64,000 nucleotides of DNA, taken from contig NZ_CP039432.1 of NCBI RefSeq assembly GCF_005484805.1, positions 434,001-498,000 of the forward strand, given 5' to 3'. Numbering within the stretch: the first letter of the stretch is position 1; every line of letters starts with the position of its first letter. This document shows, one piece after another, positions 60,004 to 64,000 of this stretch. The notes under the pieces were generated by a model, which searched no databases, was not told the DNA's origin, and saw only the letters and a list, made by a program, of their open reading frames with translations. The stretch is from Rhodococcus sp. SGAir0479. Lineage in GTDB: Bacteria > Actinomycetota > Actinomycetes > Mycobacteriales > Mycobacteriaceae. Position numbers and translations under genes: made by a program.

Positions 60004-62019
<2,016 letters not shown>

Positions 62020-62043: not shown

Positions 62044-63087
62044 TCAGGCGAGCGCGGCCTCCACGGTCGGCCACGACCGGGCCACCTCGTCACGCCAGTA
62101 CGTCCAGGCGTGGACGCCCACCGGTTGCGCGCTGCGGGTGACGTCCGCGCCCGCGTCGCGCAGGGCTCCGGCCAGTTGCTCGGTGCACATGTTGGAACCG
62201 GCCTCGAGCGCGCCCCCGACGACGAGCAGATTGGCCAGATCCGGGCGGTCGAGAGTCTCGTGCGGCCCCGCCGATCCGGTCCCGGACGAGAGGTAGATCT
62301 TCTTCCCGGCGAGGCGGTGGGCATTGGCGAACAGGTCGTGGTCGGTCCATGCCGCACCGCCCTGCGGACCCCACATCAGCTCGGCGTTCCCGTTGCCGTT
62401 CAGCACGATCAGGTCGGTGAGCGCCTTGCCCACCGGTCCATCGGTGAGATAGCAACCGCTGTAGCCGACGGCACCGTCGTACAGCTCGGGATAGCGGGCC
62501 GCGAGCATCAACGCGCCCTGCGCACCCGACGAGATTCCACCGATCACGTTGCGGCCGTTGGTGCGGAAGTGGTCGTCGACGAGCGGCGGAAGTTCCTCCG
62601 CCAGGAACGTCTCCCAGCGGACGCGGCCGAACTTCGGGTTGTCCTGCTGCCAGTCCTGGTAGAGGCTGCCGGTGCCACCGACGGGCATCACGACGTTGAC
62701 GTTCTTGTCGGCGTAGAACCCCTGCGCGTTGCCCTTGGCCGGATCGAGCCAGTTGGTGCGCTCGGGGGTGCCCGAGTTGCCGTCGAGCAGATACAGGACA
62801 CCCCGGGCGGCGCCGGGATCGGCGGGGGTGAGCACGTACACGGGCACCTCGCGGCCCATCGCCGGTGACGCGACACTGAGTAGGACCAGACGATCGGTGA
62901 CGGCAGTGGCCTTGACGATGGCGGCCGTACCGGCCTGCGATGCCGGCGGGGCGTCGGGGACCGCGGCGGGCACCGACGGGGCGGCGGCGAGCGTGAGTGC
63001 CGTGAGCGTCGCGGCGATCGCGACCACGGGCCAGGTGCGGGACGCAGGCGCGCGCCTGACGAAACGAGGAATTCTGCCGCGGTTCAT
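62044..63087 (-). CDS. Mycoloyltransferase / antigen-85-type esterase
   Basis: A 347-residue exported alpha/beta hydrolase that in this family transfers mycolic acids to trehalose, arabinogalactan or proteins. The signal peptide lies around 14-42 (TWPVVAIAATLTALTLAAAPSVPA). Family motifs are PVYVLTPAD, YLLDGNSG, NVVMPVGGTGSLYQDW, and the nucleophile region GGISSGAQGAL (S186 the likely nucleophile). The C-terminal HAWTYWRDE has the catalytic His. Upstream on the same strand are two tiny genes and an intervening hairpin. Confidence 0.87.
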   Translation of the reverse strand: MNRGRIPRFVRRAPASRTWPVVAIAATLTALTLAAAPSVPAAVPDAPPASQAGTAAIVKATAVTDRLVLLSVASPAMGREVPVYVLTPADPGAARGVLYLLDGNSGTPERTNWLDPAKGNAQGFYADKNVNVVMPVGGTGSLYQDWQQDNPKFGRVRWETFLAEELPPLVDDHFRTNGRNVIGGISSGAQGALMLAARYPELYDGAVGYSGCYLTDGPVGKALTDLIVLNGNGNAELMWGPQGGAAWTDHDLFANAHRLAGKKIYLSSGTGSAGPHETLDRPDLANLLVVGGALEAGSNMCTEQLAGALRDAGADVTRSAQPVGVHAWTYWRDEVARSWPTVEAALA

Positions 63088-63142
63088 GATTCTCGATATC
63101 TCTTCTGGGCCGGCGGAATACGTGATTCCGCTATCGAACTGC

Positions 63143-63179
63143 CAATTGGGGCACGCGCGGAAATCGCGTGCCCCAATTG
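63143..63179 (-). terminator. 15-bp hairpin between the 36-aa gene and the mycoloyltransferase gene
   Basis: CAATTGGGGCACGCG and its complement with a 7-base loop. It lies 31 bases past the 36-residue ORF and 56 bases before the mycoloyltransferase start. No clear T-tract. It may stop most transcripts or stabilise the short upstream mRNA. Confidence 0.65.
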
Positions 63180-63209
63180 CGTGCCGGAGATGGCCGGCGC
63201 CGGTCGCTC

Positions 63210-63320
63210 CTACTTGGGCGGGGTGCCACCGCTCAGCGTGAAGAGTGAGTTGACGACCCGGGTGATCAGCGGGCCGGCGCTGCCGGTGACGACTCCGATG
63301 GCGTCGTAGACGGATCCCAT
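63210..63320 (-). CDS. 36-residue peptide, candidate small mycomembrane peptide
   Basis: ATG 63320 to TAG 63210 encodes 36 residues (MGSVYDAIGVVTGSAGPLIT and 16 more, ending SGGTPPK). AGAGGAG 5 bases upstream of the ATG is one of the best ribosome binding sites in the window. There is no signal peptide. The peptide is amphipathic with Ser and Thr residues. It shares the MGS start and T-P-P ending with the 64-residue peptide encoded upstream. Size, lack of signal and neighbouring mycoloyltransferase recall PorA/PorH-type peptides, but no sequence match can be claimed. Confidence 0.7.
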   Translation of the reverse strand: MGSVYDAIGVVTGSAGPLITRVVNSLFTLSGGTPPK

Positions 63321-63427
63321 GATTCTCCTCTGGTGTGTCGGTCGAGGCGGTCCGCGAACTGTCTAGGCGTGCAATGCTGTCCGTCGCCGCCCGGCGGTCG
63401 CGGTTGTCGCTCGGTCGGTGGGTGTGC

Positions 63428-63622
63428 TTACGCCGGCGGGGTGGTGGCCGAGAAGCTGTCGATCGAGCCGAACGCGATGTCGATCAGATCGCCGGCATTG
63501 TCGAGCGCGCCCTGGAGGATGCCCTGGGCCGAGCCGAGGAACGCGTCGAGCAGTCCGTCGGCGCCCAGAGAGCCGATTCCGCCCTCGAGCAGTGCGCCCA
63601 GAATTCCTTCGAGAGAACCCAT
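63428..63622 (-). CDS. 64-residue Gly/Leu-rich acidic peptide
   Basis: ATG 63622 to TAA 63428 encodes 64 residues beginning MGSLEGILGALLEGGIGSLG and ending DSFSATTPPA. The ribosome binding site AGGAGG lies 6 bases upstream of the ATG. The open frame continues to 63679 without support. It has no basic residues and no signal peptide. Helical periodicity of Leu/Ile/Phe with Gly and Asp suggests an amphipathic helix. The end resembles the 36-residue peptide. Probably co-transcribed with it (107 bases between stop and start). Confidence 0.75.
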   Translation of the reverse strand: MGSLEGILGALLEGGIGSLGADGLLDAFLGSAQGILQGALDNAGDLIDIAFGSIDSFSATTPPA

Positions 63623-63813
63623 ACTTGCCTCCTGCAGACCTCGTGTAGTTGTCCGGTGAGAGTCCGGAAACGCTGCCACGCGGTGCGTTACCGGGCGTTC
63701 GTGTCACGGACTGGGCGTCCGGCACGTACCGAAAGGTAACAATCGAACGAACAGCCAGGGGTCGGTTTCGCGAAAAAACCTCGAATCGGAGAAAACGCGG
63801 AGAAAGCGTTGCC

Positions 63814-64000
63814 CTACTGCCGATTCGCGCGCTCGACCAACGCGCGGAACGCGCCGCGGAGCAACTCGCCGTAACGTTCGGTGTCCGGCATCATCGCGGT
63901 ATCGGCGCAGAACGATATCTCTATCTCGTCGCCGTGGTGTGACACGACGAGGTGCCGCAGCCCGACGCCGTCGACGATTCCGAGCAGGCCGAAACTTCGG
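63814..64000 (-). CDS. C-terminal end of a WS/DGAT-type acyltransferase (5' end beyond window)
   Basis: The last 61 codons of a gene entering from the right edge. The reverse strand reads LLGIVDGVGLRHLVVSHHGD, then EIEISFCADTAMMPDTERYGELL and a helical end (RGAFRALVERANRQ). This resembles the C-terminus of wax ester synthase/diacylglycerol acyltransferases, where a conserved strand and a PD dipeptide precede the last helix. The catalytic HHxxxDG would lie outside the window, so the assignment is tentative. Confidence 0.5.
   Translation of the reverse strand, partial: RSFGLLGIVDGVGLRHLVVSHHGDEIEISFCADTAMMPDTERYGELLRGAFRALVERANRQ

What the first reader, a model, noticed from the sequence alone, without database searches (positions are those of the whole stretch)
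62044..63622. Two tiny signal-less peptides beside a mycoloyltransferase: candidate peptide-porin system
A 64-aa and a 36-aa ORF have excellent ribosome binding sites, both begin MGS and both end in Thr-Pro-Pro-X. They precede an antigen-85-type mycoloyltransferase on the same strand. In Corynebacterium, PorA and PorH are short signal-less peptides O-mycoloylated by a mycoloyltransferase and form outer-membrane channels. A similar module may exist here with unrelated sequence.
Basis: inference. Interest (0 to 1): 0.72.

Follow-up and report, generated by a model that had tools for sequence, protein, structure and literature searches.

The report
Paired mini-peptides with a mycolate-transfer enzyme
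Two tiny protein genes of no known family, beside a lipid-transfer enzyme in a Rhodococcus-type bacterium, are real and conserved in related bacteria, and they look like a counterpart of the lipid-tagged mini-porins known from Corynebacterium.

Summary
A 64-aa and a 36-aa ORF (both MGS..., both ending TPPX, both with strong ribosome sites) precede an Ag85-type mycoloyltransferase on the minus strand. They are genes: homologous pairs, in the same order, occur in Prescottella, Rhodococcus, Nocardia and Speluncibacter genomes. The pair is tied to mycoloyltransferases: 20 of 20 regions fetched for the pair have one or two downstream. Among 80 named loci (a capped list), 13 of 14 with the close enzyme carry the pair, against 0 of 66 with other mycoloyltransferases. 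In 12 of 20 regions the enzyme next to the pair belongs to the clade of Cmt1/MytC, which O-mycoloylates the PorA/PorH mini-porins of C. glutamicum; at the window locus that gene is absent and an enzyme of a separate clade remains. Homology to PorA/PorH was tested and not found. Most likely this is a PorH/PorA-like pair of lipidated mycomembrane peptides of unrelated sequence. Conservation and linkage are shown; helicity, modification, export and pore are inferred. Also seen: arrays of further MGS peptides, a recurrent WS/DGAT neighbour, and a peptide class resembling ProtX, a known mycoloylated peptide.

The parts
63428..63622 (-). pep1: 64-aa signal-less peptide gene, MGSLEGILGALLEGGIGSLGADGLLDAFLGSAQGILQGALDNAGDLIDIAFGSIDSFSATTPPA
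   Evidence: (15 of 201 family genomes at E<=0.001, own genome included); pN/pS median 0.455 over 28 pairs of 8 Prescottella-group loci
63628..63633 (-). Shine-Dalgarno AGGAGG of pep1
   Evidence: Sequence; similar sites in relatives
63210..63320 (-). pep2: 36-aa signal-less peptide gene, MGSVYDAIGVVTGSAGPLITRVVNSLFTLSGGTPPK
   Evidence: (profile A2: 51 of 401 family genomes at E<=0.001 by my count of the table; the profile's 14 rows come from some of them)
63325..63329 (-). Shine-Dalgarno AGGAG of pep2
   Evidence: Sequence; similar sites in relatives
63143..63179 (-). 15-bp perfect hairpin between pep2 and the enzyme gene; probable terminator or processing site (inference)
   Evidence: 85-nt stretch, z -2.77; perfect stems of 13-18 bp within 100 nt after pep2 in 10 of 20 regions, shuffle maxima 7-11 in those ten
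62044..63087 (-). Mycoloyltransferase (Ag85/Cmt1 type, 347 aa, 'ADJ2' clade) with an apparent N-terminal signal sequence (inspection only); catalytic S186, E295, H326
   Evidence: (best PDB match Cmt1, 188 bits; PS1 157; Ag85C 82)
63814..64000 (-). 3' end of a WS/DGAT acyltransferase gene (PF03007/PF06974, 483 aa, HHSAGDG motif) upstream of pep1 on the same strand; runs past the window end
   Evidence: (a WS/DGAT at 43.7% identity or more in 18 of 20 regions)

Best explanation
The locus is a small-peptide mycomembrane module. pep1 and pep2 are translated as short, Gly/Ser-rich, probably helical peptides without a Sec signal. They leave the cytoplasm by the still unknown route used by PorA/PorH. 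A mycoloyltransferase in the cell envelope esterifies mycolate from trehalose monomycolate onto one or more of their serines (best candidates: the LSGG serine of pep2; the GS serines and the near-terminal FS serine of pep1). The lipidated pair then inserts into the mycomembrane as a hetero-oligomer, most likely a pore in the manner of PorH/PorA. Shown here: genes real and conserved; pair order and enzyme linkage conserved and specific within the loci examined; enzyme triad intact; a hairpin in the window between peptides and enzyme. Inferred: abundance, helicity, export, mycoloylation, site, pore. My estimates: real translated genes 0.97; functional tie to mycoloyltransferases 0.9; O-mycoloylated 0.55; channel-forming 0.35. 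In the window strain the modifying enzyme may be the adjacent one or a Cmt1-clade enzyme encoded elsewhere (at least three such in this genome, L093, L098, L102).
For: pep2 lies downstream in 14 of 14 uninterrupted pep1 loci of the first search (the 15th, L008, is interrupted and was left out). 13 of 14 named loci with the close enzyme hold both peptides; the 14th, L140, has only 1.1 kb of upstream sequence. An enzyme is downstream on the same strand in 20 of 20 regions fetched for the pair, including Nocardia-type regions where the Mca/DUF255 neighbours are absent. Controls: 0 of 20 other mycoloyltransferase loci in three genomes within 1.5 kb, and 0 of 66 other named loci (best 80 loci only, searched with models of the class I peptides), have the pair. 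Tree: the enzyme nearest pep2 (ADJ1, 12 rows) lies in a 26-row clade with Cmt1 (100/99), and 6 of 6 ADJ1 rows shown share a loop with it. MytC/Cmt1 is needed for mycoloylation of PorA, PorH and ProtX (PMC5310785 passages and two sections) and does it to PorA in vitro (PMC11927696 abstract and passages). Corynebacterium PorH-PorA has the same longer-then-shorter order, strong ribosome sites and no signal. Mapped mycoloylation sites sit among Ser, Gly and Ala (PMC11066868 passages); pep1 is enriched in Gly-Ser beyond composition (110 of 152 Ser in 31 sequences, 29 expected). A further peptide class of the same loci resembles ProtX, whose Ser37 is mycoloylated. Purifying selection.
Against: No sequence homology to PorA/PorH (no PorA/PorH model hit in the 80 named loci). 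The window's enzyme is in a separate clade without the Cmt1-type loop. Gly-Ser enrichment is absent in PorA/PorH and absent from pep2 once MGS is removed, so it is no proof of a modification site; rows are related, so the z values overstate independence. pN/pS for pep2 ranges up to 1.04. Class II pairs sit by a WS/DGAT gene with the nearest mycoloyltransferase found about 4-5 kb away, and one pair (L219) has none in the 10 kb fetched. The genome also has an MspA-type porin, so these peptides need not be the main channel. 4 of 14 genomes of the genus lack the pair and 12 of 23 named genomes lack a pep2 homologue. No structure prediction could be run.
Confidence: 0.5

Rival explanations
1. Lipidated structural peptides, not pores: the pair is mycoloylated and anchors or organises the mycomembrane (ProtX-like, linked to the wall), without forming a channel.
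For: ProtX is a 38-aa mycoloylated peptide of unknown function (PMC5310785 passages) and is linked to the wall (PMC12632848 abstract and three sections). E-class peptides of the same loci resemble ProtX (six members, best shuffle z 6.0, mean 3.9; BLASTP E 7e-6 for one pair). Up to five extra MGS-type peptides per locus (L063) fit a coat better than one pore. An MspA porin is already present.
Against: Strict pairing and fixed order of pep1-pep2 across genera look like a hetero-oligomer.
Confidence: 0.3
2. WS/DGAT-linked lipid peptides: the primary partner is the WS/DGAT acyltransferase, and the peptides coat lipid bodies, move neutral lipid to the mycomembrane, or are acylated inside the cell by the WS/DGAT enzyme; the mycoloyltransferase is a second lipid-envelope gene in the cluster.
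For: A WS/DGAT gene at 43.7% identity or more lies in 18 of 20 regions, upstream of the pair in 11 and beyond the enzyme in 7. It is also next to the peptides in six of six class II loci, in L219 (pair) and in L217 (a single pep2-like peptide). Seven WS/DGAT matches in the whole genome.
Against: R. erythropolis-type and R. maanshanensis class I pairs have the mycoloyltransferase but no close WS/DGAT beside them (L064, L065; L223, L227). C. glutamicum mini-porins need no such enzyme as far as known (recalled).
Confidence: 0.12
3. Secreted amphipathic peptides with another role (antibacterial, surfactant or signalling) that happen to share an operon with an envelope enzyme.
For: Small, hydrophobic, signal-less, variable in sequence and copy number. 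I made no search for immunity or export genes nearby.
Against: Pair linked to one enzyme family in several genera and absent from 66 of 66 named and 20 of 20 unnamed other loci of that family examined.
Confidence: 0.06
4. Chance ORFs.
For: Short; no family for either window peptide in Pfam or NCBIfam at E<=1; over relatives only a weak NACHT_sigma match, E 0.06, in 2 of 14 pep1 members.
Against: Cross-genus homology, synteny, ribosome sites, purifying selection.
Confidence: 0.01

Closest known systems
PorH-PorA mini-porin operon of Corynebacterium (NCBIfam NF033938, NF033925; TCDB 1.B.59, 1.B.34)
   Same: Two short signal-less ORFs, longer first, each with a strong ribosome site; acceptors of Cmt1/MytC in C. 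glutamicum; Ser in a LS-G context in PorA (LDVLS15GSG, read from the S15V primer in PMC5310785).
   Different: No detectable sequence homology; different genomic place (groEL2/ppk2 there, PMC3792995 passages; WS/DGAT and mycoloyltransferase here); in the Corynebacterium genome G312 the nearest mycoloyltransferase found is about 199 kb from porHA, here it is in the same gene cluster; MGS starts and Gly-Ser enrichment only here.
ProtX (cg2875) of C. glutamicum
   Same: 38-aa signal-less O-mycoloylated peptide, MTS start, modified Ser near the C-terminus; E-class peptides of Prescottella-group loci resemble it.
   Different: The window's own peptide classes resemble it only weakly (12 rows each: pep1 mean z 1.4, pep2 1.8), and in G312 no mycoloyltransferase was found within 300 kb of the ProtX gene.
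Cmt1/MytC protein mycoloyltransferase (PDB 4h18, 8qhf)
   Same: Best solved match of the window enzyme over 326 residues; triad conserved; ADJ1 enzymes of relatives are in its clade.
   Different: Window enzyme (ADJ2) is in a separate clade and lacks the loop before the catalytic Glu.
MspA-type porins of Rhodococcus (PF09203; PorARr, PorBRr, PorARc)
   Same: Cell-wall channels of the same group of bacteria (PMC9233653 abstract, two sections and passages).
   Different: Genes of 540-702 bp with a signal peptide, MspA-like; no Pfam match for the 36- and 64-aa peptides. One MspA gene lies elsewhere in this genome.

Membership tests
PorH/PorA porin families | Match to the curated family models NF033938 / NF033925 | tested here: not met
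   Window peptides: no NCBIfam family at E<=1, nor any of the 14 members of A6 (window pep2 and 13 homologues) at E<=0.1. Control: Corynebacterium PorH hits NF033938 at 34.6 bits over a cut-off of 30; PorA hits NF033925 at 48.1 bits, just under its cut-off of 50.
PorH/PorA porin families | Detectable homology by profile comparison | tested here: not met
   hhalign of 31 pep1 v 26 PorH E 0.074, 31 pep2 v 26 PorA E 0.081, no meaningful alignment. The pep2 profile's five matches in the Corynebacterium genus g3 are E 0.01-0.05 inside frames of 135-791 aa.
PorH/PorA-like module (works like) | Two short ORFs in tandem, longer first, own strong ribosome sites | tested here: met
   In the Nocardia-type loci the two are nearly equal in length (37-40 and 37-38 aa), so 'longer first' is weak there.
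PorH/PorA-like module (works like) | No Sec/Tat signal peptide | tested here: met
   By inspection only: pep1 has no Lys/Arg at all, pep2 has its first at residue 21; no predictor was run.
PorH/PorA-like module (works like) | Ser O-mycoloylation | not testable with these tools
   Needs mass spectrometry
PorH/PorA-like module (works like) | Hetero-oligomeric channel | not testable with these tools
   Needs bilayer recordings; the structure prediction queue was full at all ten tries
Mycoloyltransferase (Ag85/Cmt1) family | Esterase-type fold match and Ser-Glu-His triad | tested here: met
   PF00756 113 bits over a cut-off of 22; aligned to Cmt1 S189/E310/H341 as S186/E295/H326, invariant in 11 ADJ2 rows
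Cmt1/MytC (protein mycoloyltransferase) orthologue | Placement in the Cmt1 clade | tested here: not met
   Window enzyme in a separate 14-row clade (100/100); ADJ1 enzymes of relatives are in the Cmt1 clade
Cmt1/MytC (protein mycoloyltransferase) orthologue | Loop said to set MytC apart (PMC5310785; its position was not read) | tested here: inconclusive
   An extra loop before the catalytic Glu is present in Cmt1 and, shorter by five residues, in 6 of 6 ADJ1 rows, and absent in 6 of 6 ADJ2 rows shown, the window included; that this is the published loop is inference.
MspA porins | PF09203 match | tested here: not met
   No Pfam family for either peptide at E<=1

The most novel reading that the evidence does not exclude
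Protein mycoloylation is not a Corynebacterium speciality. Rhodococcus, Prescottella and Nocardia carry a large, unclassified, fast-changing family of MGS mini-peptides, from one pair up to arrays of six or seven, packed with dedicated mycoloyltransferases and often a WS/DGAT acyltransferase, that build lipid-anchored alpha-helical pores or coats in their thicker mycomembrane. They would be the unassigned small channel proteins reported biochemically from R. erythropolis and R. equi (those reports are recalled, not read).
Probability: 0.35. Interest if true: 0.85.

Novelty: new variant of a known kind. Interest (0 to 1): 0.66.

Why it matters
Whether protein mycoloylation exists outside Corynebacterium is stated as open in PMC5310785 (2017; abstract, introduction passage and one discussion section), which also notes MytC orthologues in Nocardia, Gordonia and Rhodococcus. 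This locus supplies candidate substrates next to such enzymes, in species that can be grown in the laboratory such as R. erythropolis, so the question can be approached with one extraction and one mass spectrum. If a pore follows, alpha-helical mini-porins would not be limited to the thin corynebacterial mycomembrane. No Pfam or NCBIfam family covers the two peptides in the searches made; how genome records annotate them I did not see.

Tried and rejected
Homology of pep1/pep2 to PorH/PorA: by eye PorA 'IYEVLGEV' and pep2 'IYEVLGNV', and PorH 'LDNFSS' and pep1 'IDSFSA', look alike, but profile comparison gave nothing and pairwise shuffles gave inconsistent z values (PorA of one species mean 2.26 with 12 pep2 rows, of another 0.81; PorH 1.48 and 0.29 with 12 pep1 rows). 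Treated as unproven.

A terminator or promoter by consensus scan: none found; the hairpin after pep2 has no T-run. Plasmid homologues of pep2: none at E<=0.1. A search of named genomes with the pep2 alignment A2 failed for lack of a conserved stretch and was replaced by the enzyme alignment A4. Papers on the R. erythropolis and R. equi channel proteins are cited in papers I read in part but are not held; the masses I give (8.4 and 11 kDa) are recalled.

Structure prediction of both peptides was asked for ten times and never started, because the queue was full.
Full report
WHAT IS THERE. On the minus strand, in order of transcription: the end of a WS/DGAT acyltransferase gene (stop at 63814), a gap of 191 nt, pep1 (64 aa, 63428-63622), a 107-nt spacer, pep2 (36 aa, 63210-63320), a 15-bp perfect hairpin (63143-63179), and a 347-aa mycoloyltransferase (62044-63087). 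A large gene at 60004-62019 is convergent; I call it DUF255 and the gene before it Mca from recall, no family search was run on them. The window is G000:C1:434001-498000 of a 4.97-Mb genome.

THE PEPTIDES ARE GENES. A search with pep1 alone found 15 of 201 genomes of the family at E<=0.001, 10 of the 14 listed for the genus. All 14 uninterrupted pep1 loci had a pep2 homologue downstream; over 20 regions the spacer is 47-119 nt. A pep2 profile reached 70 of 401 genomes at E<=0.05. By my count 51 of them are at E<=0.001, in six of 31 genera, and many of the weaker ones lie inside long unrelated frames. The 14 rows of that profile come from some of the same genomes. Ribosome sites of five or more bases occur in 40 of 40 pair members, against 6.75% of 8149 ATG/GTG codons; the starts had been listed with a ribosome-site filter, so this is partly circular. 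The filter-free search of named loci shows AGGAG or GGAGG for 24 of 26 members (exceptions L163 pep2, with AAAGGA, and L137 pep1, whose best-scoring start lies upstream of its MGS start). Among eight loci of the genus the median pN/pS is 0.455 for pep1 (0.14-0.68) and 0.584 for pep2 (0.15-1.04) over 28 pairs each.

LINK TO MYCOLOYLTRANSFERASES. I fetched 20 regions because they had peptide hits; all 20 hold the pair and have one or two mycoloyltransferase genes downstream on the same strand, in L058 and L063 with a second peptide pair in between and in L064 with one of two enzyme genes broken. This holds in Nocardia-type regions where the Mca/DUF255 neighbours are absent. Control one: 20 other mycoloyltransferase loci of three genomes contain none of these peptides within 1.5 kb (by reading a listing filtered for ribosome site, hydropathy and Arg content; not every enzyme gene of the three genomes was returned as a locus). 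A class II pair does lie about 4.5 kb from one of these tandem enzyme loci (L225). Control two: a scan of named genomes with the window-type enzyme kept the best 80 of 565 loci. 14 of these have an enzyme at >=55% identity; 13 carry both peptides and the 14th (L140) has only 1.1 kb of upstream sequence. The other 66 (<=49%) have no pair (one weak antisense pep1 hit in L150; class I models only). In 23 named genomes, 11 have a pep2 homologue (five Nocardia records, P. equi, P. agglutinans, R. hoagii, R. erythropolis, R. qingshengii, Speluncibacter) and 12 do not (N. brasiliensis, N. otitidiscaviarum, N. vulneris, R. ruber, R. fascians, R. triatomae, R. xishaensis, Williamsia, Gordonia, Skermania, Antrihabitans, Lolliginicoccus) (one further requested genome was not held).

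WHICH ENZYME. The window enzyme matches Cmt1/MytC best among solved structures (188 bits; PS1 157; Ag85C 82) with the triad S186/E295/H326 (Cmt1 residues from PMC11927696, section 11 read). A 52-row tree separates two peptide-adjacent clades. ADJ1, the gene closest to pep2 in 12 of 20 regions, sits in the 26-row clade of Cmt1 (100/99). ADJ2, the window type, is a clade of its own (14 rows, 100/100). Both occur in tandem in six regions (L057, L059, L065, L066, L070, L071); the window locus and six others have only ADJ2. An extra loop before the catalytic Glu is shared by Cmt1 and the six ADJ1 rows shown and missing in the six ADJ2 rows. [quoted passage not shown] glutamicum; the loop's position is not given in what I read. 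So in relatives with ADJ1 the likely modifying enzyme is ADJ1; in the window strain it is ADJ2 or one of the Cmt1-clade genes elsewhere (L093, L098, L102).

WHAT THE PAIR WORKS LIKE. In Corynebacterium, PorH (56-84 aa in the 26 genomes used here) and PorA (34-69 aa) form the same kind of tandem with strong ribosome sites and no signal. There PorA Ser15 and PorH Ser56 are mycoloylated, MytC is needed, pore activity depends on PorA mycoloylation, and a 5:5 pore is predicted (PMC5310785 passages; PMC12632848 sections 3, 9 and 10). Sequence homology with pep1/pep2 was tested and not found; pep1 and pep2 are weakly alike to each other (hhalign E 0.001). This is therefore a resemblance of design, not family membership. 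Mycoloylation sites have no strict consensus but lie among Ser, Gly and Ala (PMC11066868 passages). pep1 has Gly before 110 of 152 serines where 29 are expected, and 20 further peptides 49 of 97 (14.5 expected), while PorA and PorH show no such bias and pep2 shows it only through its MGS start. In pep2 the invariant feature is L..LSG (one row reads VSGG).

ARRAYS, CLASS II, PROTX. Two loci (L058, L063) hold a second pair before the enzyme; L057 and L059 have four more MGS peptides after it, L063 three; one Nocardia-type locus (L075) has three tandem pairs. In genus g23, which includes R. erythropolis, a class II pair (61-63 aa plus 47-48 aa, the latter with LSGG near a C-terminal Lys) follows a WS/DGAT gene in six loci. 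One array class (E) resembles ProtX: mean shuffle z 3.9 for six members, best 6.0, BLASTP E 7e-6 for the best pair taken alone; other classes and the window peptides score lower. This was one of 30 query-class comparisons, so it is suggestive.

WS/DGAT. A WS/DGAT gene at 43.7% identity or more lies in 18 of 20 regions, upstream of the pair in 11 and beyond the enzyme in 7. The genome has seven WS/DGAT matches, so this is unlikely to be chance, and it is the main alternative partner.

VERDICT AND NOVELTY. I searched the held library with seven queries and read sections or passages of PMC9233653, PMC12632848, PMC11927696 and PMC5310785, and passages only of PMC11066868, PMC3792995, PMC4827864 and PMC7775120. 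None of what I saw describes these peptides; the Rhodococcus channels with known genes described there are MspA-type. Recalled and not checked: an 8.4-kDa channel protein of R. erythropolis and an 11-kDa one of R. equi without assigned genes; both species have a pep2 homologue, while the R. ruber genome searched (MspA-type channels known) has none. I rate this a new variant of a known kind, with the chemistry and the pore still to be shown.

Noticed in passing
window 63814-64000 (-), continuing outside; L056 7815-9266: WS/DGAT acyltransferase gene directly upstream of the peptides; a WS/DGAT lies in the locus in 18 of 20 regions but on different sides in different genera. A possible cytosolic acyltransferase partner of signal-less peptides.
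   Followed up: partly
L057, L058, L059, L060, L061, L062, L063 (Prescottella group), L075 (Nocardia-type): Arrays of further MGS/MSS/MAS peptides (34-52 aa, ribosome sites) around the same enzymes, and three tandem pep1-pep2 pairs in L075.
   Followed up: partly
L220, L221, L222, L224, L225, L229: Class II pairs: 61-63 aa MGS peptide plus 47-48 aa M(I/L)EGS peptide with LSGG near the end, next to WS/DGAT genes; L224 and L225 also hold a set of three other small ORFs by a second WS/DGAT.
   Followed up: partly
window 63143-63179 and the same place in 9 other regions: Perfect 13-18 bp hairpins within 100 nt after pep2 in 10 of 20 regions, alike only between close relatives; the one in the window has no T-run.
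   Followed up: partly
L057, L059, L060-L063, L137, L139 (E-class peptides); L243 (ProtX of G312): E-class array peptides resemble ProtX, a mycoloylated peptide described as without homology to proteins of known function.
   Followed up: partly
G000:C1:388393-388962 (L216): One MspA-type porin gene in the genome.
   Followed up: no
G000:C1:2217773-2219005: A WS/DGAT paralogue with one in-frame TAG, in tandem with another copy.
   Followed up: no
L064 7127-7473; L008: A broken ADJ1 enzyme copy beside an intact pair and a pep1 copy with an interrupted frame in a low-completeness genome; left as they are.
   Followed up: no
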